Assembly (NCBI GenBank): GCA_029262335.1
Contig: JAJCZQ010000001.1
Span: 1 to 34,015, forward strand
Source: Deltaproteobacteria bacterium
GTDB taxonomy: Bacteria > Desulfobacterota_D > UBA1144 > Nemesobacterales > JAJCZQ01
Length of the DNA stretch: 34,015 nt
Direction of reading: 5' to 3'
Positions 8,498 through 33,871 of this stretch are shown piece after piece. Within the stretch, counting starts at the first letter, position 1, and each line of letters begins with the position of its first letter. The translations under genes were made by a program, and so were the position numbers. The notes under the pieces were generated by a model that made no database searches, had not been told where the DNA came from, and saw only the letters and a program-made list of their open reading frames with translations.

Positions 8498-8510
8498 ATT
8501 TTATTCCCTA

Positions 8511-9925: not shown

Positions 9926-9940
9926 TATAGATTCTCCTTT

Positions 9941-11785: not shown

Positions 11786-13693
11786 GTGCATAACACCCTG
11801 TTAATAATAAGATATATACTAATATTTACTTTTTTATTGTCCTTCGGAAAAACTTTTGCTTCTGAGGATGAATACATGGAAAAAGTTGTAGTTACAGGGA
11901 CTACAATTCCTGTATCCATTACTGAATTTCCATCCGATATTACCATTATAGACCAAGAATATATAGAAAGTTCCCATGCCGCCGATGTTTCGGAACTGTT
12001 AAAGACAGTCCCCGGAGTATTTGTGGACCAGGCAGGTGGGAGGGGCGGTGTGAGTTCTCTTTATCTAAGGGGAGCAGACCCAAACTTTACCCTGATATTA
12101 CTTGACGGCATTAAACTAAACGATCCTAATAACAGCCGTGGGGGATCATTTGATCTGTCTACACTTGGGACAGACAATATAGAAAGGATTGAGATAGTAA
12201 AAGGGCCGCAGTCCGCGGTGTATGGCTCTGATGCTTTAGCAGGTGTAATTAATATTATTACATTTGACGGGAACATGCTGTCAAAGAAAAGTATTGATAT
12301 ATCTGCACAAACAAAAGGCGGCTACAGGTTTTTTACTGAAAGCAGGGGGAAAAGAAACAGTTTCAGCCATTCCCTGAGCGCTTCTTATGTAGATGATGGT
12401 GAACCTACGGAAGGAAGTAATTTTAAGAGCCCTACATTTATCTCTAATCTTGGATATTCTACAGACAAACTGGAAGTTAAATCCGTGTCCAGATTTAGTC
12501 ATATAAAAAGTACAGGTTTTCCTGATGACAGCGGGGGCCCCGAGTTTGCAGTAATAAGAGAAACAGAAGAACGTGAATTAAATCAGTTTCTTACCGGGTT
12601 ACGGTTTATTCATTTGTCGGGAGAGTCCTGGGTAAATAACTTAAATTTATATTTAACTCATACAGATGAAGATATATCTTCACCCGGAGTAGCTCCCGGT
12701 ATTCGTGACCCTTTTGGTATTCCTGCAAATACAAGTGACAGCGAATACACTAGATTTGAAGCCGGGTACACAACTGTTTTAAAGATTGGCCCTGATAACA
12801 ATGTATCATTTGGTATTGATACTCAGTACGAAAGAGGAAAGAGCCGCGGCACTTTATTTACACAGCAGGAGATACCAACAAATTTCAGGGAAGAAAGATT
12901 TACTTTTTCACCGCTTTTAGAACTAAAACTAAATTTAATAAAAGATGTATTTATAATTGCAGGCGGCCGTCTGGATTATACTGATGATTTTGGATCCGAG
13001 TTTAGCCCGCATATTGGAGTTCTTTATAATCTATGGTCTACGGGGACATCAATCAGTGCAAACTGGGGCGAGGGTTATAAACTTCCAAGTTTTTTTGCTC
13101 TGGGTAATCCTATTGTAGGAAATGATGAATTAAAACCTGAGACAAGCAGCAGTATTGATTTTAAAGTCAGTCAGCGGTTCCTGGATGATTCATTATTATT
13201 CGCAGCTTCATTTTTTTACAATGATTTTAGTAACCTTATTGATTTTGATGAAGGCCCGCCGCCAAGGCTTATTAACCGTGACAAAGTCATAACAAAGGGT
13301 ATTGAACTTGAAGTGCAGTCAAAAAAAGTATTTGATACCATCCTGTCGGGCAATATCAGTTATATAGAATCAAATATAAAAAACTCTCCTGACAATCTGA
13401 GAAACAGGCCTGAATGGCTTGCAAATTTTAGTATTATCTGGACGCCTGATCCATTACTGGAAATTTTTACAAATATTAACTATGTCGGAAGTTTCCTTGA
13501 TTCATCCATACCGACCGGGGAAGTGAAGATAGGGGATTACCTGCTTGTAAACAGCGCAGTAACTTTTAACATAAGATCTAATTTTAAAGCTTACGTAGAA
13601 GTTAAAAACATATTAGACCAGAGATATCAGCAGGTCGCTGGTTTTAACGCACCGGGAATAAGGCCGGGTGCCGGAATAAACTGGTCATTCTAA
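11786..13693 (+). CDS. TonB-dependent outer-membrane receptor, BtuB-like
   Basis: 635 residues. Signal peptide to about residue 25, TonB box EKVVVTG at 32-38, an N-terminal plug domain (about 40-155) with LLKTVPGVFVDQAGGRGGVSSLYLRGADPN and the plug hallmark IERIEIVKGPQSAVYGSDALAGVINIIT, then a beta-barrel ending in the expected terminal Phe (INWSF). The plug pattern and length match BtuB/CirA-type receptors for cobalamin or siderophores; the substrate is not determined. No cobalamin riboswitch fits in the 43 bp upstream. The start is a GTG with a poor ribosome-binding site. Together with the CDF exporter downstream it hints at metal handling. Confidence 0.92.
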   Translation: MHNTLLIIRYILIFTFLLSFGKTFASEDEYMEKVVVTGTTIPVSITEFPSDITIIDQEYIESSHAADVSELLKTVPGVFVDQAGGRGGVSSLYLRGADPNFTLILLDGIKLNDPNNSRGGSFDLSTLGTDNIERIEIVKGPQSAVYGSDALAGVINIITFDGNMLSKKSIDISAQTKGGYRFFTESRGKRNSFSHSLSASYVDDGEPTEGSNFKSPTFISNLGYSTDKLEVKSVSRFSHIKSTGFPDDSGGPEFAVIRETEERELNQFLTGLRFIHLSGESWVNNLNLYLTHTDEDISSPGVAPGIRDPFGIPANTSDSEYTRFEAGYTTVLKIGPDNNVSFGIDTQYERGKSRGTLFTQQEIPTNFREERFTFSPLLELKLNLIKDVFIIAGGRLDYTDDFGSEFSPHIGVLYNLWSTGTSISANWGEGYKLPSFFALGNPIVGNDELKPETSSSIDFKVSQRFLDDSLLFAASFFYNDFSNLIDFDEGPPPRLINRDKVITKGIELEVQSKKVFDTILSGNISYIESNIKNSPDNLRNRPEWLANFSIIWTPDPLLEIFTNINYVGSFLDSSIPTGEVKIGDYLLVNSAVTFNIRSNFKAYVEVKNILDQRYQQVAGFNAPGIRPGAGINWSF

Positions 13694-18364: not shown

Positions 18365-18793
18365 TTATATAAAGGATTTATACCAAACGCAAAGTTCTTC
18401 ATATATTTTCCTGCTAGGGTTATTATCAGGAACATTACTCCAAATCAGATTTTCAAGGTTATCCGAAAATTTTATTGTATGGACAAAATCAGTACTTCCC
18501 GGGTTAGTCATACCAATTTCAATCACAGAATACTTTTTCTCTTTACAGTTTACTGCAAAGAATATATAAGTTTCCTGGTAATTCTCGCCGTTTTTTAATT
18601 TTTTAGGGTTCTCAAATGATTTTCTTGCCCAGGCAGTTTTTTTGTCCCCAAGCTCTGCTATATCAGAACGGTCAAGTGCAATAGTATAATTTCCGCCTTC
18701 AGGGTCTGAACCCACTGCAATATCTTCCCATCCCTTATTGTCACAGGAAGAGGCTGATATAATTAACAAAAGAAGTATTAAGTATAATTTCAA
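18365..18793 (-). CDS. Lipoprotein, surface-adhesin-E-like family (copy 7)
   Basis: 142 residues. A lipoprotein signal ends SASSC (Cys17), then GWEDIAVGSDPEG, YTIALDRSDIA, AWARKSF, YIFFAVNCKEKKYSV (first family Cys), IWSNVPDN and KIYEELCVWY (second Cys). The start is a TTG with AGGGGGC 7 bases upstream. It is divergent from copy 8 and convergent with the acidic protein, stops touching. The lipobox suggests membrane attachment where most other copies are soluble exports. Function unknown. Confidence 0.74.
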   Translation of the reverse strand: MKLYLILLLLIISASSCDNKGWEDIAVGSDPEGGNYTIALDRSDIAELGDKKTAWARKSFENPKKLKNGENYQETYIFFAVNCKEKKYSVIEIGMTNPGSTDFVHTIKFSDNLENLIWSNVPDNNPSRKIYEELCVWYKSFI

Positions 18794-18891
18794 AGTTACT
18801 GCCCCCTGTTCCTATTAATATAAAACATATTAAAAATTATTGCTACAAAATGCTGGTTAATTTAATTAATGATTATATATTATTGTTCACT

Positions 18892-19320
18892 ATGAAAAAT
18901 ATAATAATTATAAATCTTTTTGTCATACTTTTTGCAGTCCCTGCTTATTCAGACGACTGGCTTCTTATAAGCGAACTATTTAACGGAAATAAGATATATA
19001 TAGACCCTGATAAAATTACATATACTAAGGAGTTTGTCGAAGCACCTATAAAACAGATCTTTAATAAACCTATTACAACACAAAAAGGGACTATGGCAAC
19101 GGCATATGAAACAAATGCCAAAGCAAATTGTGAGTATAAGAAAGTGGGATTTTTCGGTGTCAAGGCATATAACCTTGAGGGAAATGTATTTTATACTGAT
19201 AAGAACTACAACTTCTGGCCTAAAGGTGTTGCCGAACATTCAGCCGGGGACAACATCATAGATTATCTTTGTGACAGGAACTTCAAAGACAATATTCAGC
19301 AAAAAATACTTCAGAATTAA
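18892..19320 (+). CDS. Exported small protein, surface-adhesin-E-like family (copy 8)
   Basis: 142 residues from the ATG at 18892 (MKNIIIINLFVILFAVPAYS), which gives a standard signal peptide. An upstream ATG at 18850 would add 14 residues and spoil it. Mature features: DWLLISELFNGNKIYIDPDKI, IKQIFNKP, NAKANCEYKKVGFFG (first Cys), EGNVFYTD and DYLCDRN (second Cys). It is closest in layout to copy 5 and shares with it a no-Shine-Dalgarno, CACTATGAAAA-type start. Its last 4 bases overlap the end of the convergent gene. Confidence 0.75.
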   Translation: MKNIIIINLFVILFAVPAYSDDWLLISELFNGNKIYIDPDKITYTKEFVEAPIKQIFNKPITTQKGTMATAYETNAKANCEYKKVGFFGVKAYNLEGNVFYTDKNYNFWPKGVAEHSAGDNIIDYLCDRNFKDNIQQKILQN

Positions 19321-22184: not shown

Positions 22185-23081
22185 ATGAACTTTAAGATTG
22201 AAGAATATATAAGTTCTAAAAGACAGTTAGTAGATAAAAGATTAGAAAAAATATTCCAGGCCGGAAATAAGAAACAATCAAAACTTAAAGAATCGATACG
22301 TTACAGCCTTCTTGCAAGCGGAAAAAGGCTAAGACCTGTTCTATGCCTTGCCTCATGTGAAACTTTTGGTGGCCGTACTTCCCAGGCACTTCCGGTTGCC
22401 TGTGCAATAGAGATGATACATACCTATTCGCTTATACATGACGATCTGCCGTCTATGGATAACGATAATCTCAGGAGGGGAGTGCCCACGAATCATAAGG
22501 TCTTTGGTGAATCTGCAGCCATACTTGCCGGAGACGCTTTACTTACAGATTCATTTAACCTGATAATAAAAGAAGGAATAAAGAAAGAAATATCCTCTGA
22601 TAAAATATGTGAATTAATTGCTACATTATCAAATGCAGCAGGTTCAGCCGGTATGGTGGAAGGGCAGGCTATAGACCTGGAATTTGGTTCGAAAAAGAAT
22701 GTTTCCCCTGATGACCTGAAGAAGCTGCATTCACTTAAAACAGGTGCATTAATAAGTGCTTCGGCAGTTTCTGGTGCAGTTGTGGCAGGTGCAAAAAAAG
22801 ATGAGATAAAACACTTGAAAAAATTCTCAGACTCTATTGGACTGGCTTTCCAGATTAAAGATGATCTGATAGATGATACGGGGGCTGGCAAAACCGGGAA
22901 ATCAGGCGGTTCAGATAAAAAAAACAAAAAGTCGACTTACCTGACCGTGCTTGGCGAAGAAAAGTCACTAAAATTAATTGATAATTTAACCACTAAATCA
23001 AACGGCTACCTGGACAGGATAGACCGGGACACATCAATACTCAAAGAACTGGCCAACTACCTTGGTAAAAGAAACCGCTAA
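22185..23081 (+). CDS. ispA: (2E,6E)-Farnesyl diphosphate synthase
   Basis: 298-residue all-helical prenyltransferase that adds isopentenyl diphosphate to allylic diphosphates to make C15 farnesyl diphosphate for quinones and undecaprenyl carriers. The first Asp-rich motif is HDDLPSMD with the two-residue insertion of bacterial farnesyl synthases, followed by RRG. The second is KDDLIDD. The residues before the first motif, IHTYSLIHDD, match IspA with Tyr at the chain-length position. The ATG directly follows xseB; the 3' end overlaps tlyA by 20 bases. dxs, which often sits between ispA and tlyA, is absent here. Confidence 0.95.
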   Translation: MNFKIEEYISSKRQLVDKRLEKIFQAGNKKQSKLKESIRYSLLASGKRLRPVLCLASCETFGGRTSQALPVACAIEMIHTYSLIHDDLPSMDNDNLRRGVPTNHKVFGESAAILAGDALLTDSFNLIIKEGIKKEISSDKICELIATLSNAAGSAGMVEGQAIDLEFGSKKNVSPDDLKKLHSLKTGALISASAVSGAVVAGAKKDEIKHLKKFSDSIGLAFQIKDDLIDDTGAGKTGKSGGSDKKNKKSTYLTVLGEEKSLKLIDNLTTKSNGYLDRIDRDTSILKELANYLGKRNR

Positions 23082-23808
23082 AAAAATAAGGATTGATAAA
23101 TTAATCCATGAAAGGGGGCTTGCTGAAAGCAGATCACAGGCGCAGGCCATAATTATGTCGGGTTCTGTATTTATCAATAATCAAAGGGTAGACAAACCAG
23201 GGACTGCAGTAAAAGCAGACTCTGAGATTGAGATTAAAAACAATAAGATCAGGTATGTGGGCCGGGGAGGGCTGAAACTTGAAAAAGCCCTAGATCATTT
23301 TAATGTTGAAGTAAGTAATTTAACTGCCCTTGATATCGGTGCCTCTACAGGTGGGTTTACTGACTGCCTTTTGCAAAAAGGTGCATTAAAAGTATATGCA
23401 TTTGATGTTGGTCACGGACAGTTTGACTGGAAACTAAGAAACAACGAAAAGGTAGTGGTAAAGGAGAAAATTAACTGCAGGTATCTTGAATACTCTGATG
23501 TAGGCGAACTTGTGGACCTTGTTGTTGTTGATGTATCTTTTATTTCATTAAAGCTAATTGTGAGTCCTGCGGTAAAGTTGCTGAAAGAGGGCGGGGTTCT
23601 GATAGCACTTATAAAACCGCAATTTGAAGCCGGTAAAGGCGAAGTTGGTAAGGGTGGAGTAATAAAAGACGAAACCAAACACATGGAAATAACTGAAATG
23701 ATTCATTCACACTTCAAAACTCTAAATCTTAATGTCATGGGGGTAATACCTTCACCAATTGAAGGTGCTGACGGGAATAGAGAGTTTCTAATCTGTGCAG
23801 TTAAATAA
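23062..23808 (+). CDS. tlyA: TlyA-family rRNA 2'-O-methyltransferase (S4 + FtsJ domains)
   Basis: 248 residues. An S4 RNA-binding domain (RIDKLIHERGLAESRSQAQAII, about 9-65) is joined to a Rossmann methyltransferase with SAM motif DIGASTGGFTDCLL (about 90-103), a VVVDVSFISL segment and IKPQFEAGKGEVGKGG. Members methylate ribose 2'-OH of cytidines in 16S and/or 23S rRNA, some also behaving as haemolysins. The start is a TTG inside the end of ispA with no strong ribosome-binding site, pointing to coupled translation. It converges on the transaldolase gene with 5 bp between stops. Confidence 0.94.
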   Translation: MVKETAKKIRIDKLIHERGLAESRSQAQAIIMSGSVFINNQRVDKPGTAVKADSEIEIKNNKIRYVGRGGLKLEKALDHFNVEVSNLTALDIGASTGGFTDCLLQKGALKVYAFDVGHGQFDWKLRNNEKVVVKEKINCRYLEYSDVGELVDLVVVDVSFISLKLIVSPAVKLLKEGGVLIALIKPQFEAGKGEVGKGGVIKDETKHMEITEMIHSHFKTLNLNVMGVIPSPIEGADGNREFLICAVK

Positions 23809-23813
23809 TATTT

Positions 23814-24458
23814 TTACTTTTTACCCCAGTCCGCAAGAAATCTTTCGAGCCCTATATCTGATAAAGGATGATTATAGAGCTGTTTAAATATCTTATAAGG
23901 CATTGTGGCAACATCAGCGCCAAGCAGAGCTGACTCTGCTATATGCATGGGGTGTCTGATACTGGCAACAAGCACTTCGGTCCTAAAATCATAATTTTCA
24001 TAGATCTGGACAATCTCTTCAATTAGCTGCATGCCCGAAGTTGAAACATCATCGAGCCTTCCCACAAAAGGGCTGACATAAGCTGCACCGGCCTTAGCTG
24101 CAAGAAGTGCCTGTGAGGAAGAAAAAACAAGAGTAAGGTTAACATTGATACCCTTGTCAGATACATGTTTGGTAGCCCTGATACCGTCCTCAGTCATTGG
24201 CATTTTAACCACAATATGTTTATGTATCTTAGCAAGGACTTCGGCCTCTTTGACCATTTTTTTATATTCAGTACTTAGTACCTCTGCACTCACCGGACCC
24301 TGTACGATTTCGCAAATTTCTTTTACAAGTTCATGAAAACCTTTTTGTTCACCCTGCTGTGATACAAGTGAGGGATTAGTTGTTATTCCATCTAGTAAGC
24401 CGGTTGAAGCTATTTCTTTGATTTCATCCAAATTTGCAGAGTCGAGGAAAAATTTCAT
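23814..24458 (-). CDS. tal: Transaldolase, small (TalC/fructose-6-phosphate-aldolase-like) type
   Basis: 214 residues, the size of the short transaldolase group. N-terminal [13 protein letters not shown] and [12 protein letters not shown] are diagnostic. The Schiff-base lysine is Lys85 in IVVKMPM, and [11 protein letters not shown] and [11 protein letters not shown] follow. It transfers a dihydroxyacetone unit in the non-oxidative pentose phosphate pathway, or acts as an aldolase. It stands alone, and the lasso-peptide methyltransferase gene ends 61 bp upstream on the same strand, so read-through from that operon is possible. Confidence 0.95.
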
Positions 24459-24519: not shown

Positions 24520-25671
24520 TCAGTTGCCATATTTTAATGATAGTAGTCCAACGTATTGTAATGCTTCATCAATATTTTTGAAATTACCCGGGTATTTCTT
24601 TAATAACATTGCTGCTGTTTTTTCATTACTGGATCTTTTTTTAAACATATTCAAAATATCAAGTTCCCGCAGGCCCCATGAATTTAAAGATGTTTTGTAG
24701 CCTGGAGCTTTCTTTATAAACTCATCAGGTGATATCAGTTTGTTTAAAAAAGTGGACTGTTTAAATTCTGCGAATGGGACTTTTGAGTATTTCTTGAAAA
24801 CTTTTGTTTTCCAAGACCATATGTAGCTGTCTATATTTAATGAGGCCGAAATTTCAATTTCTATTCTGGTCCCGTTAGTTAGTTTTACCGGCCGGGAAAA
24901 TGGAAAAAATCCCCTTCCATAAACCTTTGAGCCCTTTACTTCAGGAGAGTTTAATAATCTGGTATCTTTCGTGAGGTTACTGTTAAACCATAATACAATG
25001 CCGTGTGCAGTACCTGTTTTAAGTGACTTTAACGATAATTTCTGTTTAAAACTGTTTTTTTTAAGTCTGTAATAATCTATCTCAAGCCACTTTTTTGATT
25101 CGGTGAGAATATTTATTCTATTTTTACCTAAAGGGTATATACCATTTGTGCATATGGCCCGGCCGTCACTTAGATCAAGCCCGCTAACGCCCTGCTCCCA
25201 AATTTGCGTAATATCCCTGTAGAGTCCCTGCGCTCCGGCAACGGAGCAGATAATCTGGTCTTTACCTGGAATTAAAACTCCACTTTTTTTAAGAAACCTG
25301 TCCCTGGCATCCATAATTACTTCCAGATTATTCCCATATAAGGGAAGCATCCCTCTTATGTCTGAAATAAGAATGTCTGCTTTTTCCGGCAGTGTTACAT
25401 CGGTCGAAGATTTGTTGATGAACGTTATTTTATCTTCATACCCGTTCTTTTTGGCTGATTTTACCCCGAGGTTTAATGCATGATTTGGTTCGATTGCATA
25501 TACTTTTTTAGCACCGAGTTTGCATGCAAGAAGTGAAAATATCCCCGTACCGGCACCCAGGTCTACCACTATTGAATTTTCTTTTACGGAATTCTTCAGT
25601 GCAGATACATACGCATCCATTCGCCATTTATCATTAATCATTTTTCCATAATCAGAAGTTGTATAGGCCAT
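24520..25671 (-). CDS. PRMT-like class I methyltransferase of the lasso locus
   Basis: 383 residues. The N-terminus (YGKMINDKWRMDAYVSAL) and SAM motif DLGAGTG (37-43) with Glu61 (AIEPN) match protein arginine methyltransferases, and the AHGIVLWF strand matches their beta-barrel domain. The catalytic double-Glu loop is changed: the usual two Glu fall at Asp104 and Gly113 in ISDIRGMLPLYGN, so arginine methylation is doubtful. A C-terminal stretch (about 330-383, LDILNMFKKRSSNEKTAAML... YP) looks like a small winged-helix domain that might bind leader peptide. It is last in the minus-strand lasso operon, 8 bp after the kinase. The predicted core has no Arg, so the target is unknown; an O-methylation or an inactive role is possible. 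Confidence 0.75.
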   Translation of the reverse strand: MAYTTSDYGKMINDKWRMDAYVSALKNSVKENSIVVDLGAGTGIFSLLACKLGAKKVYAIEPNHALNLGVKSAKKNGYEDKITFINKSSTDVTLPEKADILISDIRGMLPLYGNNLEVIMDARDRFLKKSGVLIPGKDQIICSVAGAQGLYRDITQIWEQGVSGLDLSDGRAICTNGIYPLGKNRINILTESKKWLEIDYYRLKKNSFKQKLSLKSLKTGTAHGIVLWFNSNLTKDTRLLNSPEVKGSKVYGRGFFPFSRPVKLTNGTRIEIEISASLNIDSYIWSWKTKVFKKYSKVPFAEFKQSTFLNKLISPDEFIKKAPGYKTSLNSWGLRELDILNMFKKRSSNEKTAAMLLKKYPGNFKNIDEALQYVGLLSLKYGN

Positions 25672-25679
25672 GTTATTTT

Positions 25680-26603
25680 CTAATTTAAACAGTTTTTAAT
25701 AACGAGTTTATATGCTTTCTCAAGGGCTCCTTCGTCATGTGAATAGTTTAATTTATAAAGTTCTAAATTATTGATCAAATCAGTAAGGAACCTGAAATCA
25801 TATTCATTTTTCTTCCTGTCCTCAAAGTCAAACCTGTAAAGGTTTTTTATTAGAAATGAAAATGATTCTGATTGAGATATTTCTTCAACGGATGTTGATT
25901 CTGCTCTGTTTAATATATAGATTGCACTTAGAGCCGTTGGCCTGCTTTCAGTTTTGATTAATCCGTTAGTGCATTTAACTACCTTTTTTTCATTATACTG
26001 GGACACATCACTCAGATCATGCTGGTTATCAAATAGCATCTCCACAGATGAAGGCCAGAGTCTTATACCTGGATAGCTGGGCACTGCCAGGTAGCTGTCT
26101 TTTCCTTTTTTTACCAGTATAGAATCATCTGAGATCAATCGTTGATTCTTAAGGGCGAAATATGCTGCAAGAGTGGACTTGCCTGACCCACTAGGGGCTA
26201 TGAACGAAACTGCCAGGTCACCAATCTTTACGGTACTTGAATGAAAAACCATATTATCAGAGAGTGTTAGAATATTGGGTATTACATGATCGGCAATTAG
26301 ATGAGTAATGGTGTTAGAAGTAGCACCCGGTTTTAAGAAGGTGTATATGATCTCTTCATCCCTGTCTATTGTAAAGTCTGCAAACTTATGGAACCTCATG
26401 GCAAGTGTTTTGCCATTTCTTAAAAACGATGCCCAGGGCCTGCCCTCGAATTTAATCTGGTGATAAACCTCAAAACCTTTGTCTATAGGGGATTTGTTCA
26501 GGGTCTTAATGCTGTAGTCTTCAACGGTACTGTCAGAACTGGGAATGTTATTAAGTTCTATTTCGGATTTGATATTTTTATCAAAAATTTTATAAATGTT
26601 CAT
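25680..26603 (-). CDS. HPr-kinase-like lasso-peptide kinase
   Basis: 307 residues. A divergent N-terminal domain (1-115) precedes the HprK catalytic core: FHSSTV with His121, Walker A APSGSGKST (136-144), the acidic pair Asp159-Asp160 in RLISDDSIL, and VPSYPGIRLWPSS (174-186). This is the layout of the peptide kinases of lasso clusters such as those for paeninodin and pseudomycoidin, which phosphorylate a Ser near the peptide C-terminus using a nucleotide donor. HprK homologues in exopolysaccharide loci are an alternative, but adjacent B1, B2 and precursor favour the lasso role. It lies 50 bp after B2. Confidence 0.85.
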   Translation of the reverse strand: MNIYKIFDKNIKSEIELNNIPSSDSTVEDYSIKTLNKSPIDKGFEVYHQIKFEGRPWASFLRNGKTLAMRFHKFADFTIDRDEEIIYTFLKPGATSNTITHLIADHVIPNILTLSDNMVFHSSTVKIGDLAVSFIAPSGSGKSTLAAYFALKNQRLISDDSILVKKGKDSYLAVPSYPGIRLWPSSVEMLFDNQHDLSDVSQYNEKKVVKCTNGLIKTESRPTALSAIYILNRAESTSVEEISQSESFSFLIKNLYRFDFEDRKKNEYDFRFLTDLINNLELYKLNYSHDEGALEKAYKLVIKNCLN

Positions 26604-26653: not shown

Positions 26654-27097
26654 TTAAAATGCAGAATATTTTTCCAGTGGATTATCCTGGCCGTTTAGAA
26701 CAATACCTTCTTTTTCAACCCAGGCATGTGCACTAAATCTATTTTCACTGTTTTCTACCCCGATTTTTAACTCACTCTTTATGCCGTTTATACCGAGAAT
26801 AAAATAGGTAAAAAGAGATTTTTCCAGGCACGTTGAATTAAATAAAGTATTTCCAAGTGCTAGATTAATTATTTTAGAAAGATTATCTGCTTCTGATAAA
26901 CTCTTGTCTTTATTAGATCCGGTCCGGCGACTGATTATGTATTCAACAAGATTTCTCGCTTTTTTATACCCGGCCGTCCTGAATAAAAGAAGATAAAGAT
27001 TGTAAAAGAATGAATATTTTATAAAACTCCATTTCTCAATATTTGATAGAGTAGTAAACCTGCCGATCTTTGATTTAACTGAGTGTAATAATTCCAT
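26654..27097 (-). CDS. Lasso-peptide leader peptidase (B2, transglutaminase-like)
   Basis: 147 residues, typical for a stand-alone B2. The Cys-His-Asp triad is visible: Cys90 in NSTCLEKSL, His124 in FSAHAWVE and Asp138 in NGQDNP. The flanking signature LGINGIKSELKIGV is likewise characteristic. B2 removes the leader at the bond after the residue following the conserved Thr, delivering the core to the cyclase. The 5' end overlaps the B1 gene by 23 bases, the tight coupling expected of B1-B2 pairs (fused in some clusters). Confidence 0.93.
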   Translation of the reverse strand: MELLHSVKSKIGRFTTLSNIEKWSFIKYSFFYNLYLLLFRTAGYKKARNLVEYIISRRTGSNKDKSLSEADNLSKIINLALGNTLFNSTCLEKSLFTYFILGINGIKSELKIGVENSENRFSAHAWVEKEGIVLNGQDNPLEKYSAF

Positions 27098-27356
27098 TGC
27101 TTTTGAGTTCTTCTAAGAGAATGTCTAAATCTTTCTTTAGTTTAGTGGGTGTTACATCAAATATTTCAAGTAAATTATCATATGCGGTTTTTATATCGGC
27201 TGTATTAGTTAACTCTTTCCAGAAAATTGTACCCGCACTATCCAGCCCATAGTAAGTCTCGTTGTCCAGGTTAAGAAAGACAATTTCGCCATTTGAAAGT
27301 TCCTGAAACATAATATCGTCCGGGACTTTTAGTGTTTTATTGAATATAGTTGTCAT
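27075..27356 (-). CDS. Lasso-peptide leader-binding protein (B1, PqqD/RRE family)
   Basis: 93 residues of PqqD-like winged-helix fold, the RiPP recognition element. The pattern VFLNLDNETYYGLDSAGTIFW, then a helix pair ending ELKSNGIITLS, is diagnostic. It binds the precursor leader (here the YxxPxL region) and presents it to B2 and C. It is the first gene of the minus-strand lasso operon. A 12-bp perfect palindrome lies about 22 bp upstream of its start, and the upstream spacer is shared with rpsT. Confidence 0.92.
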   Translation of the reverse strand: MTTIFNKTLKVPDDIMFQELSNGEIVFLNLDNETYYGLDSAGTIFWKELTNTADIKTAYDNLLEIFDVTPTKLKKDLDILLEELKSNGIITLS

Positions 27357-27472: not shown

Positions 27473-27754
27473 ATGGCTTTAAGAATAAAATCAGCTAAGA
27501 AAAAACACAGGCAAAGTCTTAAAAAAAGGGAAAGAAATAATTACGTAAGAACCACCCTTAAAACAAAAACAAAGCTTTTTAATGCCGCTATTGAAGAAAA
27601 AGACGTTGAAAAGGCCAATGAAAGACTTAAAGAAATAGTTTCTGCATATGATAAAGCCGCTACAAAAGGTGTTATTCATGCAAGGAACGCATCAAGGCAT
27701 ATTTCAAGGTTTTCCAAGAAAGTACACAATCTTTCTTCAAATGCTGATGCCTGA
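27473..27754 (+). CDS. rpsT: 30S ribosomal protein S20
   Basis: 93 residues, basic and helical. The N-terminal RIKSAKKKHRQSLKKRERNN and the C-terminal IHARNASRHISRFSKKVH are standard for S20, which binds 16S rRNA at the base of the small subunit. It sits between the divergent lasso B1 gene and convergent holA (6 bp between stops). rpsT beside holA is a conserved neighbourhood, so the lasso genes appear to have come in around it. Confidence 0.97.
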   Translation: MALRIKSAKKKHRQSLKKRERNNYVRTTLKTKTKLFNAAIEEKDVEKANERLKEIVSAYDKAATKGVIHARNASRHISRFSKKVHNLSSNADA

Positions 27755-27760
27755 CGGGTG

Positions 27761-28711
27761 TTAGTTTTCGCATATCTTTATTATAAACCTGCTTATTAAG
27801 TTGTACTTATCCTGGCTATACGACTTTATTTCTCTATCCAGTTTGGCAAGTCCGCTCATTGCAGATGATATTTTTTGATAACTGAAGTTTCCAGCCTGTT
27901 TTTTTAAATAGTACAAAGCCCCGGAAGATATTTTTAGTTTTTTTATTATCTCGCTATCGTTCATCCCGGATTTTGATATTTCCTTGAGGTGCCATATCTG
28001 TCTGATCCTCCAGCTTAAAGTTGAAACTATTGAAACCGGATCATAATTAATACTCCTGAGTTCATTTAAAACTTTTACAGCGGATTTTTTGTCTTTTCCT
28101 GCAATGGAATTTAAAAGCTGAAAAATATCGTCATGACTTCTCTTTGTAATAAAACCGAGTATGTCCTTATCGCTGATAATTTCTTTACCCCCAAAGTACT
28201 GAGCAATTTTTAAAAGTTCATTGTTTATTACTTTAAGGTCATCCCCCAAAAGCTTTTGTAGTTCATGTGCTGCTTTGGGTGTGAGTTTTAGTCCTATTAG
28301 CCTGGCTTCCTGAATTACCTTCTGTTCGATCTTGTCACCTGATTTGAAGATTTGTGATTCAAGATTATTATGCTTTTTAATTTTTGGCTTATTTGTTTCA
28401 TTTGAGAAAAGGACAATAAAACAGTCCTTAGCAGCGGAATCTATATATTTTTCAATGGCTGAAATATCGTCTTTTTTCAGTTTTTCACAGTTTTTTACGA
28501 CTATTAATTTGGTCTCCTGAAAAATAGAGTAATTATTAGCATTACCTATTATTTCCTCAATAGAGTCGGATTCGGTATGATATGTAAATTGCTGGTATCC
28601 GGGAAAGTTAATTTCTATGGTAGTTCTCAGTTCATCTATATATCTTTCGATAAGCAGTGCCTGGGGCCCGGCAAGAAGGTATACAGGTTTTAAGTTGGTT
28701 GACTGAGACAT
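27761..28711 (-). CDS. holA: DNA polymerase III subunit delta
   Basis: 316 residues. The opening PVYLLAGPQALLIERYIDELR is the HolA P-loop-like start without a functional Walker A. RSHDDIFQLLNSIAGKD and SILSWRIRQIW-type segments match the delta C-terminal collar domain. As part of the clamp loader it opens the sliding clamp during replication. Typical length. It is divergent from lipB with 51 bp between starts. Confidence 0.94.
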   Translation of the reverse strand: MSQSTNLKPVYLLAGPQALLIERYIDELRTTIEINFPGYQQFTYHTESDSIEEIIGNANNYSIFQETKLIVVKNCEKLKKDDISAIEKYIDSAAKDCFIVLFSNETNKPKIKKHNNLESQIFKSGDKIEQKVIQEARLIGLKLTPKAAHELQKLLGDDLKVINNELLKIAQYFGGKEIISDKDILGFITKRSHDDIFQLLNSIAGKDKKSAVKVLNELRSINYDPVSIVSTLSWRIRQIWHLKEISKSGMNDSEIIKKLKISSGALYYLKKQAGNFSYQKISSAMSGLAKLDREIKSYSQDKYNLISRFIIKICEN

Positions 28712-28762
28712 AGTAATTTTTAATAATATTTATTACAAGAAGCATATTTAAGAGATAAAAAA

Positions 28763-29461
28763 ATGCCAGTTAAAAGATCAATATTTTATAAGTTCCTTGG
28801 CCATGTCCCTTATTCAAATGCGCTGCAAATTCAGGAACAACTTCATAAATCTGTTCTTTCAGGAGCATTGGGCATGGACGGGTGCATTTTGTTTCTGTCA
28901 CATGAACCTGTAATAACATTTGGGAAATACAGCTCTGAAACCAACCTCCTTGTTGATGAAAATAAGTTGTCCGAACTAGGAGTAAATGTTTACAGGTCAT
29001 CCCGCGGGGGTGATATTACCTGCCATGAACCGGGGCAGTTGGTTATATATCCGATACTGAATTTAAAGAAGATGCACCTTGGTGTTAAAGAATATGTCGG
29101 GATGCTTGAGCTTACTATTATAAATTTTTTGAGTGAGTTTGGGATTTCCGGTGAGACGGTAAAAGGGCGTCCGGGAGTGTGGGTTGAAAATAAAAAGATT
29201 GCTTCAGTTGGAATCAATATTTCGAAATATGTTACAACACATGGATTGGCAATAAACATATATAACAGTTTGGAGAGTTTTAGTTATGTGAATCCATGCG
29301 GTTTTTCTGATATTGGCATGACATCCGTTAAACTTCTTAACGGGGAATGCGGTGACCTCGATAGTGCCGGCACAATATTCTTAAAACATTTTGAAAATAT
29401 ATTTAAGGTCTCAGGGGTTAAATACCAAAGTATTAAGGAAGCTGCCGGAAATCTAATTTAA
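28763..29461 (+). CDS. lipB: Octanoyltransferase (lipoyl(octanoyl) transferase)
   Basis: 232 residues. Moves octanoyl from acyl-carrier protein to lipoyl domains of 2-oxoacid dehydrogenases and the glycine cleavage H protein. The diagnostic SRGGDITCHEPGQLVIYPI stretch (about 76-94) holds the substrate-binding RGG and HxPGQ elements. The catalytic Cys is in NPCGF near residue 178. GRPGVWV and KIASVGINISKYVTTHG follow, the latter with the catalytic Lys. lipA is not adjacent. The last four bases overlap the end of the convergent DUF218 gene. Confidence 0.95.
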   Translation: MPVKRSIFYKFLGHVPYSNALQIQEQLHKSVLSGALGMDGCILFLSHEPVITFGKYSSETNLLVDENKLSELGVNVYRSSRGGDITCHEPGQLVIYPILNLKKMHLGVKEYVGMLELTIINFLSEFGISGETVKGRPGVWVENKKIASVGINISKYVTTHGLAINIYNSLESFSYVNPCGFSDIGMTSVKLLNGECGDLDSAGTIFLKHFENIFKVSGVKYQSIKEAAGNLI

Positions 29462-30099
29462 AAAATTTCACCTTTGTAATAATAAATTATTTTCTGATAC
29501 TCAAGTACTATTTCTTTCCAGTGGTTTTTATTCTTATTCAGATTGTTCGGGTCAAAACTGTCATATTTGCTGGGCCTGATTGTTATATCTATACCGGAGT
29601 TCTTGAAGATTCTTTTAAATATTAATGCTGACCTTTTTGAATGGCTTTTAGATGTTGTAACAATTATTGATTTGTAATCATTCTGTAAAGCTATCTTTTT
29701 GATTGCTTCGGCTTCTTCCCTTGTGCTGTAGACCCTTCCCGGTAATAGAATAATTTCTTTATCGTTAACACCAAGTTTATTTGCAACAAACTTGTTAAGG
29801 TCAGCTTCTTCCGGGAAATCTATATCTTTGGAATTTAGGTATTCCAGCCCTTCTGGTTTTCCTCCCCTCGAAATGATTAACTTTGAGGCATGGCCATTGT
29901 TTATAATGTCTATTGCTTCTAATACCCTCGATGGAGAACTGCCGCCAAGTACTGCAACAGCATCGGATTTTTTAATCTGCTGATCCACAACAAGGCCCGT
30001 TGCAAGCAGTTTTAGTATGGGAGCGGAAAAAATAAATAATAAGGAACAGACAGAAAATATTAAAATTATTAATATTAATAAAAATCTGCCTGCTCTCAT
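29458..30099 (-). CDS. DUF218/YdcF-like membrane-anchored protein
   Basis: 213 residues. An N-terminal transmembrane anchor (about 6-34) is followed by the DUF218 core: AVAVLGGSSPSRVLEAIDII, ASKLIISRGG, a ELL-like ILLPGRVYSTREEAEAI segment and IIVTTSKSHSKRSALIFKRIF. Family members such as SanA, YdcF and ElyC are linked to envelope barrier function and undecaprenyl-lipid metabolism, but the reaction is not settled. It follows ndk by 5 bp on the same strand, a probable operon. Confidence 0.87.
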   Translation of the reverse strand: MRAGRFLLILIILIFSVCSLLFIFSAPILKLLATGLVVDQQIKKSDAVAVLGGSSPSRVLEAIDIINNGHASKLIISRGGKPEGLEYLNSKDIDFPEEADLNKFVANKLGVNDKEIILLPGRVYSTREEAEAIKKIALQNDYKSIIVTTSKSHSKRSALIFKRIFKNSGIDITIRPSKYDSFDPNNLNKNKNHWKEIVLEYQKIIYYYKGEIF

Positions 30100-30104
30100 T
30101 TTAT

Positions 30105-30521
30105 CTAACCAAATATTTGTAAGGAGTTGAAAAAATAGTTTAGTTCATAATCAGCCGATTCCTGTGAATCCGAACCGTGAACTATGTTATGTTCTATGTT
30201 ATCTGCAAAATCTTTCCTGATAGTCCCTTCTTCTGCTTCATCAGGGTTAGTTGCACCCATAATACCTCTTACTTTTGCAATTGCACCTTCACCCTGTAGG
30301 GCCATTACAACACATGGTCCGGATGACATAAATTCCGTGAGACTTCCAAAAAAAGGCCTTTCCCTGTGAACGTAGTAGAATCCCTCAGCCTGACTGATAG
30401 ACATATGAATCATTCTAAGGCCTACGACTTTGATACCATTTTTTTCGAACCTTCCAATAACTTCGCCGATGACATTTTTTGAAGTCCCGTCAGGTTTTAC
30501 GATAGATAGTGTAGTTTCCAA
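30105..30521 (-). CDS. ndk: Nucleoside diphosphate kinase
   Basis: 138 residues, standard length. Transfers the gamma-phosphate between nucleoside di- and triphosphates through a phospho-His, here His115 in [32 protein letters not shown] and [17 protein letters not shown] are all canonical. The start is a TTG at 30519-30521, fixed by GGAGGT 8 bases upstream; no ATG exists in the right place. It is divergent from the lasso cyclase gene. Confidence 0.97.
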
Positions 30522-30640: not shown

Positions 30641-32491
30641 ATGAGCGGAATATTATTCCAGATTAACCACAACGGTTCACCCATAGACAGAAAAAACTTT
30701 CTTAATATGTTTTCCCGGATTGAACACAGGGGAGGGGACGGCAGTAACCATGTCTTTATGGAAAATGCTGCAATGGGATGCCATTATTTCTGGACAACAC
30801 CAGAGGATGTTGGTGAGATTCAGCCTGCTATTTCAAAAGAAAGGGACATATACCTCCTGCTTGACGGCAGGATAGACAACAGGCCGGAACTGATATCGGA
30901 CCTTGATATAGATCAAAAAGAAGCGAGCTCACTGCCTGATGCCGGATTGGTCCTTAAAGCCTATCAAAAGTGGCAGGAGCGGATTTTTGCAAAACTTGTC
31001 GGATCATTTGCCGCCATTCTCTATTTGCCTGCAGTTAAAAAAATTCTTGCAGTCAGGGACCAGGTTGGTGACAGGACACTGTTTTATTATAATGACAATA
31101 GTAAATTTATTATCTCCTCTGAGCCATACTCCATTCTTGCAAACAGTGAGGTCCCTCAAAAACTCAACAAAAACAAGGTGGCTGAATACCTTGCGATTAA
31201 GCATCAAACTGACAACTCAACTTATTTTCAGGGTATTTACGAATTACTTCCCGGCCATTACATGCTTTGTAGAGAAAAAAAGACTGCGTTAAAGAAATAC
31301 TGGAATTTTAATTTTTCGGAAAAAGTCAGGTACCGCAATCATAATGAGTATGCCGAGCATCTTCTTGAAATTCTGGATAAAAGTATTTCCAGCAAAATGA
31401 GGTCGGTAAAACCACCCGGGATTATGATGAGCGGCGGACTAGACTCTACTGCTATTGCAGCTATCGCTGCTAAATATGCAAAGGGAAGGCTTAAAGCATT
31501 CTCCTACGTTTTTAATAAATATAAGGATTGTGATGAGAGCGGGTATATAGATGAATTTTGTAATATGTATGATACTGACAGCTTTAGGCTGAACGGCGAC
31601 GATTATCTGCCTTTAGTAGATATAAAGAATCCCTGTGTGAGCCCGAACTTTCCAAACCAGGATTCGTATCAGACGCTTAAGAATGAACTCTACAGGCAGG
31701 TCAAGAAGTCCGGCAGTAATATTTTGCTTACTGGCTGGTATGCAGACCAGTTATTTGCAGGGGAAGAACACTGGTTAAAAGAAAGTGTAAGGGATATTCA
31801 AATTTCCATATTATTTAGAAACCTAAAATCACTGGTTTCCAGGAGAGGGCTTCTGGGCCTTCGAAATGAAAGTTCAGTAAGGACAGCACTAAGGCCCTTT
31901 CGTAATATTAAGAACTTTATTTTAGGACCCCCGCCCACATATGATAAATATTCCTATATGACGCCTTACGCAAAATCTTTGCTTTTTAATGGCAATGGGT
32001 GGAACAGTAATCCTGAAGGAACAGGACGTACCGGCCAGATTTTAAATGTACTTGGCCTTCGGACTGCTTATGATGCCTCTGCATGTTCTCACTGTACGAC
32101 GGGGGTGAATATTGATTTCAGGTATCCATACAGAGACATCAGACTGATAGAATATTTTCTTAAGCTGCCGGCATATCAGCTGCATGACAACTCGGATTAT
32201 AAAAATAAGTATATTCTTAGAAATGCAATGAAGGGGCTTTTGCCCGCTGAAATACTGGAACGAAAAAAGATTACCCTTTTTATCGAACTGCTTGACCAGA
32301 GTTATAATACAAATAAAAAGGATATGAACAGATTGATAAAAATGCATAATGATGAATTAGGTGAATATATTGAAAATAATATTCTTAATGTTATTCTTAA
32401 TAAGAATTACAAAGATTTTGAAGGTTTAGAATCAAATCTGTTCTGGAGTACGTATACTTACCTGGAATGGAAATCAAGAATATTTAAGTGA
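30641..32491 (+). CDS. Lasso-peptide cyclase (C, asparagine-synthetase-like)
   Basis: 616 residues. An N-terminal class II glutaminase-like domain (1-190) starts MSGILF with Ser rather than the nucleophilic Cys at position 2, so it cannot release ammonia from glutamine, as expected of lasso cyclases. The C-terminal ATP-pyrophosphatase domain has SGGLDS (264-269), a TGWYADQLFAGE segment and VNIDFRYPYRDIRLIEYF. It would adenylate the Glu8 side chain of the core and join it to the Gly1 amine. It heads the plus-strand arm; the precursor ATG follows its stop by 5 bp. Confidence 0.9.
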   Translation: MSGILFQINHNGSPIDRKNFLNMFSRIEHRGGDGSNHVFMENAAMGCHYFWTTPEDVGEIQPAISKERDIYLLLDGRIDNRPELISDLDIDQKEASSLPDAGLVLKAYQKWQERIFAKLVGSFAAILYLPAVKKILAVRDQVGDRTLFYYNDNSKFIISSEPYSILANSEVPQKLNKNKVAEYLAIKHQTDNSTYFQGIYELLPGHYMLCREKKTALKKYWNFNFSEKVRYRNHNEYAEHLLEILDKSISSKMRSVKPPGIMMSGGLDSTAIAAIAAKYAKGRLKAFSYVFNKYKDCDESGYIDEFCNMYDTDSFRLNGDDYLPLVDIKNPCVSPNFPNQDSYQTLKNELYRQVKKSGSNILLTGWYADQLFAGEEHWLKESVRDIQISILFRNLKSLVSRRGLLGLRNESSVRTALRPFRNIKNFILGPPPTYDKYSYMTPYAKSLLFNGNGWNSNPEGTGRTGQILNVLGLRTAYDASACSHCTTGVNIDFRYPYRDIRLIEYFLKLPAYQLHDNSDYKNKYILRNAMKGLLPAEILERKKITLFIELLDQSYNTNKKDMNRLIKMHNDELGEYIENNILNVILNKNYKDFEGLESNLFWSTYTYLEWKSRIFK

Positions 32492-32496: not shown

Positions 32497-32646
32497 ATGA
32501 AAAAGAGTACAAAAGATAAAGCCAATAAAATTAAATATACAAAACCCAAACTACAATCATTTGGTAAGCTTGCAAAGCTTACTCTGGGTTTTTCTATGCC
32601 GGATGGTGAATCCGGAATGACCAATACACAAATGGCTAGTCCTTAG
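32497..32646 (+). CDS. Lasso-peptide precursor (A)
   Basis: 49 residues. The leader (1-30) carries Tyr14, Pro17, Leu19, Gly23 and Thr29, fitting YxxPxLxxxGx5T exactly. Thr29 is the conserved penultimate leader residue, so B2 should cut after Leu30. The 19-residue core GFSMPDGESGMTNTQMASP starts with Gly1 and has Glu8, giving an 8-membered Gly1-Glu8 ring; Asp6 would make too small a ring. Thr, Ser and Met dominate the tail, with no bulky aromatic plug. Ser18 is penultimate and is the probable kinase target. The gene lies between cyclase and nucleotidyltransferase; the AAGTGA ribosome-binding site is weak, so coupled translation is likely. Confidence 0.9.
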   Translation: MKKSTKDKANKIKYTKPKLQSFGKLAKLTLGFSMPDGESGMTNTQMASP

Positions 32647-32677: not shown

Positions 32678-33871
32678 GTGCCACCTGAATTCCAAATAGA
32701 AAATAGATTTATTATTAACTCGCTCGAAAATACACTTTCGGGTAAACCTATCGATCCAGCTTCATTTGATAACGGACCTCTAAACTGGGACTACATTATT
32801 GCTACTTCAGAGTTAAATGGCGTAATCCCTCTTGTTTACAAATCACTTAACCTCTTTGATAAAGACCTTGTCCCCGTGGATGTGGCTGAAACATTTTCCG
32901 AACTCAACCGCGAATCGGCTGTTAGCAACCTTATAAAATTAACAGAACTTTTTAATATTAATAAAAAATTTAAGGAAAGTGGTATAGATTCACTCGTCCT
33001 AAAAGGGGCGGGTCTCGGCTGTGATGTATATGGGGATATTTCCCTAAGGCCGTTTGGTGACCTCGACATATTGATCCGGGAAGAAAAATTGATTTCAGCC
33101 GTAAATATTTTAACTGACTGCGGGTATGAACATATTTTTGTATATACAGATAAACAGGCCGCACTTTATAAGCAGTCTGCTTTTTATTTAAAAGACCAGG
33201 AGCTGCATTATTCTTTTTATAACCCGATAAAAAAAATATATTTAGAACTTCACTGGGCACTGATGCCCATTAAATATTCGTTTTCTCAGGATGTTGAGGA
33301 AATTTTTGAAAATGCTGTTTCAGTCTCAGCCGGGCAGGGAGAAATTTTTGTTCCGTGTATAGAAGACCTGATAATATACCTGTCGCTTCACGGCTCTAAA
33401 CATTACTGGTCAAGGCTGATCTGGGTATTTGATATTGCAGTTTTTATAAAAGAAAAGAAAAATGTTAACTGGGAACTCGTTATTGCTAAATCTGAGGAGC
33501 TTAATTGTAAACGTATGTTATTACTGTCCGTTTATTTAGCAAAAAATTTGTTTTCATGTGATATTCCCAAAATATTATTAAATTACCTGAAGGCTGACAA
33601 TTCGGTCTCAGTGATGGGTGAAATTGTAATTAGTAATTTTAAAAACGGTCTCAGCTATGAGGAAATTGAAGCAGAAAATAAAACATTTTTTCTAAGATCA
33701 ATGGATAGTAATATTGATAAATTATGGTTTGTATCAAAAATAATTTTCAAACCAACAATTTATGAACTTGAGGCAGTGTCTCTTCCCAATAAATTGTCTT
33801 TTTTATATTACCTTATACGTCCTCTAAGGCTTTTAAAAAAGTATTTATTAAGGCTCTTTTCTTACAACTAA
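32678..33871 (+). CDS. Nucleotidyltransferase-fold protein of the lasso locus
   Basis: 397 residues of the uncharacterised nucleotidyltransferase family (PF14907-like). The polymerase-beta-type core reads LVLKGAGLGCDVYGDISLRPFGDLDILIREE (about 108-138), with the G-D-x-D metal-binding pair; the His-containing YLSLHGSKHYWSRLIWVFDIAVFI stretch follows near 230-255. A protein of this type in the pseudomycoidin lasso cluster acts after the kinase to add sugars to the phosphorylated Ser, a plausible role here. The start is a GTG with a weak ribosome-binding site. Its 3' end overlaps the convergent O-antigen-ligase-like gene by 24 bases. Confidence 0.85.
   Translation: MPPEFQIENRFIINSLENTLSGKPIDPASFDNGPLNWDYIIATSELNGVIPLVYKSLNLFDKDLVPVDVAETFSELNRESAVSNLIKLTELFNINKKFKESGIDSLVLKGAGLGCDVYGDISLRPFGDLDILIREEKLISAVNILTDCGYEHIFVYTDKQAALYKQSAFYLKDQELHYSFYNPIKKIYLELHWALMPIKYSFSQDVEEIFENAVSVSAGQGEIFVPCIEDLIIYLSLHGSKHYWSRLIWVFDIAVFIKEKKNVNWELVIAKSEELNCKRMLLLSVYLAKNLFSCDIPKILLNYLKADNSVSVMGEIVISNFKNGLSYEEIEAENKTFFLRSMDSNIDKLWFVSKIIFKPTIYELEAVSLPNKLSFLYYLIRPLRLLKKYLLRLFSYN

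What the first reader, a model, noticed from the sequence alone, without database searches (positions are those of the whole stretch)
32497..32646. A complete lasso-peptide precursor with predicted product GFSMPDGESGMTNTQMASP
The 49-residue gene is short enough to be missed by gene callers, yet its leader matches every conserved lasso position and it sits beside a lasso cyclase. A Gly1-Glu8 ring is predicted with an 11-residue tail rich in Ser, Thr and Met and no aromatic plug, which is unusual for keeping the thread locked. The host lineage appears to be a little-studied one, so the peptide is likely undescribed.
Basis: partly seen in the sequence, partly recalled or inferred. Interest (0 to 1): 0.93.

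Follow-up and report, generated by a model that had tools for sequence, protein, structure and literature searches.

The report
Lasso peptide with scattered modifying genes
A tiny gene in an uncultured bacterium encodes the precursor of a knotted (lasso) peptide, and one of its helper genes belongs to a recurring kind of methylating enzyme, not described in the papers searched, that turns up with methionine-rich peptide tails.

Summary
Window 32497-32646 encodes a 49-residue lasso precursor with core GFSMPDGESGMTNTQMASP, five bases after a lasso cyclase gene. B1, B2, an HPr-type kinase (K), a nucleotidyltransferase (N) and a methyltransferase (M) lie in the same window. No transporter was recognised before the contig ends.

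Three things go beyond the finding. First, the lasso genes are interleaved with a housekeeping block (tlyA-tal-rpsT-holA-lipB-ydcF-ndk). The only other lasso cyclase found in 56 class-level relatives is interleaved with the same block differently. Second, M is an arginine-methyltransferase homologue whose first arginine-binding Glu is Asp; the precursor has no Arg. In another order its strong relatives lie beside lasso genes in 21 of 22 genomes (two seeded the search). Third, M tracks tail methionine: 20 of 21 M+ cores against 2 of 17 M- cores, ignoring relatedness. All 21 M+ cores have Ser/Thr at position 2 or 3, which fits ring phosphorylation as shown for BsfK.

Best reading: a phosphorylated, methylated Gly1-Glu8 lasso of a Met-tailed subfamily, mostly without aromatic tail residues. 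Boldest reading: M makes methionine sulfonium in the tail. Exceptions exist, and no product has been observed.

The parts
32497..32646 (+). A: lasso precursor, 49 aa (32497-32586 leader, 32587-32643 core GFSMPDGESGMTNTQMASP, stop 32644-32646)
30641..32491 (+). C: lasso cyclase (Asn_synthase + GATase domains; starts MSG, so no Cys2 for glutaminase, a point recalled from asparagine synthetases)
   Evidence: Pfam; NF033535 E 5e-97, below cut-off; 31% identical to G017 cyclase; PDB asparagine synthetase relatives
32678..33871 (+). N: nucleotidyltransferase (Pfam NTP_transf_5), starting 31 bases after A
   Evidence: PF14907 E 4e-55
27075..27356 (-). B1: PqqD-like RiPP recognition element
   Evidence: PF05402 E 2e-11; 48% identical to G017 B1 over residues 1-92
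26654..27097 (-). B2: leader peptidase, transglutaminase-like
   Evidence: PF13471 E 7e-17; NF033537 E 6e-17, above cut-off
25680..26603 (-). K: HPr-kinase-like precursor kinase; His121, Lys142-Ser143, Asp159-Asp160 at the spacing given for BsfK
   Evidence: TIGR04352 E 7e-12 (below cut-off); residues; BsfK residues from PMC10368454
24520..25671 (-). M: PRMT-family methyltransferase with altered double-Glu loop (SDIRGMLPLYGN) and a C-terminal domain of about 80 residues
   Evidence: PDB 1g6q E 1.3e-24; family alignment
27473..30521 (.). Housekeeping genes that split the lasso genes: rpsT (+), holA (-), lipB (+), DUF218/ydcF (-), ndk (-)
   Evidence: Pfam/NCBIfam for holA, lipB, DUF218; synteny in relatives; rpsT and ndk named by recall from sequence
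23062..24458 (.). tlyA (+) and transaldolase tal (-), left flank of the same block
   Evidence: synteny; tlyA and tal named by recall from sequence

Best explanation
It is a lasso-peptide gene set of the phospholasso kind whose genes are scattered through a housekeeping block. B1 binds the leader (YTKPKL). K, helped by B1, phosphorylates ring Ser3. M methylates the precursor or product, most likely in the Met-rich tail or at the C-terminus. B2 cuts after Thr(-2)-Leu(-1). C activates Glu8 and closes the Gly1-Glu8 ring round the tail. N adds a sugar or nucleotide to the phosphate. Shown on sequence: the precursor, the enzyme families, the gene order, the recurrence of M beside lasso genes, and the association of M with tail methionine. 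Inferred: every chemical step, the phosphorylated residue, the methyl acceptor and the export route.
For: Leader and enzymes. Same leader pattern and Gly1-Glu8 after the cyclase in G017. K keeps the H, K-S and D-D residues of BsfK at equal spacing, and BsfK phosphorylates core Ser3 with B1's help (PMC10368454, Results part 1 read). 21 of 21 M+ cores carry Ser/Thr at position 2 or 3, against 7 of 16 M- cores. M lies 8 bases from K, K 50 bases from B2, and B2 overlaps B1, all on one strand, as in an operon. M relatives lie beside C, K or a precursor in 21 of 22 strong matches, two of which (L195, L199) seeded the profile. N is of the kind reported to add hexose to phospho-Ser in pseudomycoidin (PMC9266682 section on phosphorylation; the kinship of N to PsmN rests on the shared annotation, not on an alignment).
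Against: No product or expression data. K scores below the curated cut-off of every kinase model it matched. The precursor model match is just below cut-off. No lasso-type ABC transporter was recognised among the window's reading frames (by eye), and the contig ends 144 bases after N. One of 21 M+ cores (L259) has no Met at all, and one M- cluster (L301) has a terminal Met. I found no report of a tested enzyme of this M family in the papers searched.
Confidence: 0.75

Rival explanations
1. M is a C-terminal carboxyl methyltransferase like StspM; tail methionine is only an inherited trait of the same lineages.
For: Works for all 21 M+ cores, including L259 without Met. C-terminal methyl esters are known in lasso peptides (PMC9266682 section on methylation).
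Against: StspM was modelled on mitomycin-7-O-methyltransferase, whereas M is a PRMT homologue. It gives no reason why M+ tails are 47 of 210 Met and M- tails 2 of 259, or why three M-less relatives (L299, L300, G017) have no tail Met.
Confidence: 0.35
2. M methylates ring Asp6, giving an aspartimide at Asp6-Gly7 as TceM and LihM do.
For: The window core has Asp6 followed by Gly7; Asp6 is the TceM/LihM site (PMC9266682 section on succinimidation).
Against: Asp or Asn at position 6 occurs in only 3 of 21 M+ cores, and Asp-Gly at 6-7 only in the window. M resembles PRMTs; no isoaspartyl methyltransferase family is among the listed matches (one search lists the best 25 of 35).
Confidence: 0.06
3. 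M is an ordinary arginine methyltransferase that acts on some cell protein and is next to K by chance.
For: Clear homology to PRMT1 (E 1.3e-24). One other PRMT-like gene that keeps the Glu pair (L205) lies about 0.5 kb from a K hit in a lasso region, so PRMT-like genes of another type can also be neighbours.
Against: First double-Glu residue is Asp in 23 of 23 M-family proteins, while it is Glu in the four plasmid relatives inspected and in L205 and L160. The window precursor has no Arg, and only 6 of 21 M+ cores have one. 21 of 22 strong relatives lie beside lasso genes.
Confidence: 0.05
4. The scattered genes are a decaying, non-functional remnant.
For: Genes are split and rearranged; no transporter recognised; of 57 genomes of the class (own included) only the window's and G017 carry a lasso-like cyclase.
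Against: The window's A, B1, B2, C, K, M and N are open frames of normal length. G017 keeps A, B1, B2, C, K and N as open frames although its core is quite different. A starts 5 bases after C.
Confidence: 0.1

Closest known systems
bsf cluster of Bradymonas sediminis (BsfK phosphorylates core Ser3)
   Same: A, split B1/B2, C, K and N present; kinase residues at equal spacing; Ser3 in the core
   Different: bsf is one 7-ORF cluster with a D transporter, Ile(-2) and no methyltransferase. The window has Thr(-2), M, no D recognised, and scattered genes.
Paeninodin/SyanA-type phospholasso peptides (C-terminal Ser phosphorylation) and pseudomycoidin (K + N)
   Same: HPr-type kinase and, for pseudomycoidin, nucleotidyltransferase beside lasso genes
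   Different: Window core ends in Ser-Pro, not Ser, so the known C-terminal site is absent.
Lassomycin/StspM and lihuanodin/TceM-LihM methyltransferases
   Same: A methyltransferase tailors a lasso peptide
   Different: Those are O-methyltransferases likened to other families in the review; M is PRMT-like with an altered substrate loop.
Eukaryotic-type PRMT1/Hmt1
   Same: Residues 9-229 align (E 1.3e-24)
   Different: First double-Glu residue is Asp, second is Gly; extra C-terminal domain; lasso gene context.

Membership tests
Lasso peptide | Leader with YxxPxL ... Thr(-2) and core with Gly/Ala1 and Asp/Glu at 7-9 | tested here: met
   YTKPKLQSFGKLAKLTL then Gly1-Glu8; NF033521 E 0.003, below cut-off
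Lasso peptide | B1 (RRE), B2 (peptidase) and C (cyclase) in the same genome | tested here: met
Lasso peptide | Threaded isopeptide product | not testable with these tools
   needs mass spectrometry and NMR
Lasso peptide | Contiguous A-B-C(-D) cluster (usual, not strictly defining) | tested here: not met
   Five housekeeping genes separate B1/B2/K/M from C/A/N; no D recognised
Phosphorylated lasso peptide | HPr-type kinase with H ... K-S ... D-D | tested here: met
   against residues listed in PMC10368454; one listed Gly is Ala136 here; curated models hit only below cut-off
Phosphorylated lasso peptide | C-terminal Ser acceptor (paeninodin type) | tested here: not met
   core ends Ser-Pro
Phosphorylated lasso peptide | Ser/Thr at core position 3 (BsfK type) | tested here: met
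   Ser3; activity not testable here
Protein arginine methyltransferase | PRMT catalytic domain homology | tested here: met
   PF22528 and PF17286 below cut-off
Protein arginine methyltransferase | Two conserved Glu that hold the guanidinium group | tested here: not met
   Asp and Gly in the window; Asp for the first in 23 of 23 M-family proteins, Glu for the second in 2 of 23; role of the Glu pair is recalled
RiPP recognition element in M's C-terminal domain | Profile similarity to PqqD/B1 | tested here: inconclusive
   hhalign probability 22.5% over 23 columns; no PqqD match in Pfam for the window's domain

The most novel reading that the evidence does not exclude
M belongs to a lasso tailoring family, derived from arginine methyltransferases, that S-methylates methionine in the tail. 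The bulky, permanently charged sulfonium would then serve as the steric lock in place of the missing aromatic plug, next to a phosphorylated ring. Such a peptide would be a zwitterionic lasso of a kind for which I found no report.
Probability: 0.22. Interest if true: 0.88.

Novelty: new variant of a known kind. Interest (0 to 1): 0.64.

Why it matters
Lasso peptides are prized for stability, and most are held by bulky aromatic locks or disulfides (PMC13352647 and PMC8498205, passages). Here is a subfamily, in two lineages, in which 16 of 21 cores have no aromatic tail residue and none has Cys; instead they are rich in methionine and tied to an uncharacterised methyltransferase and a kinase whose likely target is in the ring. 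Three naturally M-less relatives without tail methionine make the link testable with a few synthetic genes. If M modifies methionine, it is a RiPP reaction I found no report of; if not, it is still a lasso-linked methyltransferase type that NCBIfam did not name for the three members scanned. The window also shows that lasso genes can be interleaved with housekeeping genes, so cluster-based miners may miss them.

Tried and rejected
Aspartimide at Asp6-Gly7: attractive from the window alone, rejected as a family trait because the motif is in 1 of 21 M+ cores.

Structure of M: single-sequence AlphaFold gave mean pLDDT 43, so no fold search was made.

M's C-terminal domain as an RRE: looks like a winged helix by eye, but the profile match to B1 was weak; left open.

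Candidatus Dadabacteria came to mind but was not tested; a paper search with that name and lasso peptide found none.

First genome-contig scan with the cyclase alone found no relative; the second, with the two-sequence alignment, found G017's contig and one weak hit, L063, used only as a handle to its phylum.

Clustering baseline: 59 B2 regions were fetched as a control for how often C lies near B2, but detection with divergent cyclases was too insensitive, so no rate is claimed. They were used for M- precursors.

How M- was decided: for L167, L188, L193, L198, L203, L209 and L212 no M hit in the fetched 20 kb; for L269, L271, L276, L277, L279 and L289 no M hit in the locus (about 1.5 kb each side of the cyclase match) and the genome not among the 28 of 396 matches; L278 and L301 lie in G782, which has M in another cluster; G017; BsfA by the paper's gene list. 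M- cores are only those whose leader fitted my patterns, so the set is small and not random.

Rows dropped before counts: precursor-like strings in L156, L163, L205, L253 at 6304, L245 at 4812, L246 at 4945, L265 and three extra strings in L199, L292 and the second string in L297 were left out by eye as spurious or unclear. L196, L204 and L200 repeat the cores of L188, L193 and L198 and were not counted again; L270, L273, L274, L282, L288 and L297 are M+ clusters already counted. No core could be found for L243 and L258. L301's precursor was found after the first counts and added only to the tail-Met counts; it has Phe in the tail and Ser2. In the tree, L301 was fetched in the belief that it held the cluster of L278; it is another cluster of the same genome. 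The six weaker M matches were left out of the 22.

Full report
WHAT IS THERE. The 150 bases 32497-32646 on the + strand encode a 49-residue peptide and its stop. The start codon lies five bases after the stop of a 616-residue gene (30641-32491) whose best curated match is the lasso isopeptide cyclase (NF033535, E 5e-97, 326 bits, below its 525-bit cut-off). The leader has Tyr(-17), Pro(-14), Leu(-12), Gly(-8) and Thr(-2), counting back from Gly1, and the lasso leader model matches residues 14-33 with E 0.003 (17.5 bits; cut-off 19). In a search of 56 genomes (own included) for that leader model this place scored best (E 0.0136; next 0.37); 12 of 56 had a match at E 10 or better, none over the cut-off, and 7 of 14 control genomes also gave sub-threshold hits, so the model alone proves little. 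The weight comes from position and partners. Taking Gly1 as the first core residue gives GFSMPDGESGMTNTQMASP, ring Gly1-Glu8, tail of 11. Computed masses: linear 1943.770, cyclised 1925.759, plus phosphate 2005.726.

PARTNERS. On the other strand lie B1 (27075-27356, PqqD, E 2e-11), B2 (26654-27097, NF033537 above cut-off), an HPr-kinase-like K (25680-26603) and a methyltransferase M (24520-25671). B1 and B2 overlap, K follows B2 by 50 bases, and M follows K by 8, so they look like one operon. (One search prints one TAA inside the B2 match; the match runs 3 bases past the gene's own stop.) After A, 31 bases on, comes N (32678-33871, NTP_transf_5, E 4e-55). The window is the whole contig (34015 bases) and ends 144 bases after N, so a transporter could lie beyond.

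SCATTERED GENES. Between B1 and C lie rpsT, holA, lipB, a DUF218 gene and ndk. HolA has a match in 34 of 42 genomes searched, the window's and G017 included. I fetched the region in G017 and in 7 of the 32 others and compared them. In these 7, rpsT, holA and ndk were together in 7 of 7, lipB in 6 of 7, and tal directly beside rpsT in 5 of 7; none gave a hit for C, K, M, B1, B2 or N (tblastn, E 1e-4) in 17-19 kb. The cyclase search covered 60 genomes: the window's own, 1 of the same genus, 41 of the same order, 14 of the same class and 3 of other groups. 18 matched at 1e-20, but outside the window only G017 has a lasso-like one (E 1e-99; the next, in G017 itself, 1e-34). B2-type genes over the cut-off occur in 6 of 56 genomes (own included), four of them without a lasso-like cyclase. 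G017 belongs to another family of the order. There K, C and A lie between tlyA and tal, N lies between tal and rpsT, and B1-B2 lie on another contig with no A, C or K in the fetched 20 kb. The two G017 contigs that meet inside tal share an exact 141-base end, which supports that order. Thus in both genomes lasso genes are threaded through the same housekeeping string, in different places. Dispersal is not unique to this group: in the distant order below, L245 and L248 have A and M but no C or K hit within about 8 kb.

G017 PRECURSOR. TTG-started, MNKKNTDSKVKDYKKPELKVFGKLMELTK|GSDPGPQESGGSLCNSNLQSCFPTSP: same leader pattern and Gly1-Glu8, a different core with two Cys, no Met. M gave no match in G017; in 42 genomes (own, 1 of the genus, 40 of the order) only short weak matches (E 9e-7 to 9e-6) occur besides M itself.

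THE KINASE. PMC10368454 (abstract, introduction, discussion, results part 1 of 2 and passages read) reports that BsfK phosphorylates core Ser3, that B1 speeds this up, and that His, Lys, Ser and two Asp matter. The window's K has His121, Lys142-Ser143 and Asp159-Asp160 at the same spacing. One of the three listed glycines is Ala136 here. The core has Ser3. Known C-terminal-Ser kinases (paeninodin type, PMC9266682 phosphorylation section) act on a terminal Ser, which is absent here.

THE METHYLTRANSFERASE. By sequence M is a PRMT homologue (yeast Hmt1 1g6q, E 1.3e-24). In the printed alignment the PRMT stretch S-E-W-M-G ... Y-E is S-D-I-R-G ... Y-G in M. The precursor has no Arg. On plasmids eight records hold distant relatives; four were inspected. 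Three have annotated neighbours without lasso genes, and the fourth record has no annotation there. All four keep Glu at the first position. In a sample of 398 genomes of the phylum of L063's genome (a MAG titled Gammaproteobacteria; that this is a phylum other than the window's is inferred), 44 carry a B2-type gene at 1e-8. Of 59 B2 regions fetched, two (L195, L199) have M beside a precursor, C and K; two more have PRMT-like genes that keep the Glu pair (L160, without other lasso hits; L205, about 0.5 kb from a K hit in a region that also has C, B1 and N hits but no precursor I could recognise). A profile of the window's, L195's and L199's M then matched 28 of 396 genomes of L195's order at 1e-30. 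22 strong matches (E 8e-65 or better, L195 and L199 among them) lie beside C, K or a precursor in 21 of 22 (not L258); the 6 weaker ones (2e-34 to 1e-30) lie beside none. Across the window and these 22, the first Glu is Asp in 23 of 23; the second is Glu in only two (L259, L261). The window's loop (SDIRGMLPLYGN) is closest, by eye, to the L259-L262 group (L259: SDIRGGLPLFEH). NCBIfam gave no match over cut-off for the three M proteins scanned (best 25 families of each seen). In one genome (G811, L253) the M frame has an internal stop, and in three others (L256, L257, L258) the aligned frame is short or diverges at its end.

M AND METHIONINE. Precursors were found beside M in 20 of 22, plus the window: 21 M+ cores. 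For three of them (L249, L250, L253) the core end was taken, by assumption, at the Ser before an S74-type domain. Tail Met: 20 of 21 M+ (not L259); 2 of 17 M- (L279 and L301; L301's and L278's genome has M in another cluster); Fisher p 1.3e-7. Residues: 47 of 210 against 2 of 259. Phe/Trp/Tyr in the tail: 5 of 21 M+ against 13 of 16 M- (L301, found later, not counted; it has Phe). Ser/Thr at position 2 or 3: 21 of 21 against 7 of 16 (L301 not counted; it has Ser2). Cys: 0 of 21 M+. These p values ignore relatedness, and the M- set is only what my leader patterns recognised. A cyclase tree (34 rows) needs at least 4 changes of the M label: M+ rows form most of one large group, most of a second (L259-L262), and the window. 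M-less rows sit next to M+ ones: G017 beside the window (100/100), L300 with L259-L262 (100/100), L299 and L301 inside the large group. L299 and L300 have C, K, B1, B2 and D hits with a precursor but no M hit, and their genomes are not among the M matches. Their cores, GSSGDLGDGNVAKRGPK and SGSVSNPETAGNQTTAKHI, have no Met. Against: L259 has M and no Met, and L301 has one Met at its very end.

HOW IT WORKS, MOST LIKELY. Ring phosphorylation at Ser3 (about 60% likely), methylation by M (that M acts on this precursor, about 85%; on tail Met, about 22%; on the C-terminal carboxyl, about 35%), cleavage, ring closure and N-type elaboration of the phosphate. The lack of an aromatic plug is shared by most M+ cores, so the thread must be held otherwise: by Met, by a modified Met, or by the phosphate or its sugar. 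These shares are judgement, not computed.

KNOWN OR NEW. A lasso precursor in an unstudied lineage is by itself a new member of a known kind. The M family, its link with Met-rich aromatic-poor tails, and the interleaved genes make it a new variant. Searches of the held library for lasso peptide with arginine methyltransferase (1 paper, PMC12637814, listing only, an antimycobacterial agent acting on the ribosome), PRMT (0), sulfonium and methionine (0), Dadabacteria (0), and methyltransferase + kinase + Sphingo (16; one listed) turned up no description in what I saw. Of the 16 I opened four: PMC10368454 and PMC9266682 (named sections), PMC8498205 and PMC13352647 (passages). The passages of PMC13352647 mention C-terminal methylation and aspartimide formation as lasso methylations and say that most steric locks are bulky aromatic side chains. 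Papers outside that library were not searched.

Noticed in passing
S74 domains self-cleave (recalled), which might free the lasso tail. The search for both terms listed one unrelated paper.
   Followed up: partly
L044 4289-9397 (G005), similar ORF order in L043 (G025): Cassette PqqD - HPr-type kinase (below cut-off) - B2-like peptidase - NTP_transf_5 - ABC-2 transporter without a cyclase or recognised lasso precursor in the fetched 20 kb (Pfam run on L044 only); a possible cyclase-less relative of phospholasso systems.
   Followed up: partly
window 5415-10880 and 18365-19320: Six small genes matching Pfam Adhesin_E above cut-off (5415, 8036, 8511, 10488, 18365, 18850): an expanded local family.
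   Followed up: partly
window 11786-13693: TonB-dependent receptor about 11 kb from the M-K-B2-B1 genes; no evidence that it is linked.
   Followed up: no
L301 4768-5031 (G782): Lasso precursor with leader like the M+ group but a Cys/Phe tail, next to a cyclase without other lasso hits in 12 kb; G782 has three lasso-like cyclase loci (L243, L278, L301).
   Followed up: partly
L205 1629-2690 (G283): PRMT-like gene that keeps the Glu pair, about 0.5 kb from a lasso-type kinase hit in a region with C, B1 and N hits: perhaps a second PRMT-like type near lasso genes.
   Followed up: no
window 32497-32646 and L003 3364-3531: The window's and G017's cores both end in Ser-Pro (MASP, PTSP) despite otherwise different cores; 7 of 21 M+ cores end in Pro.
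   Followed up: no
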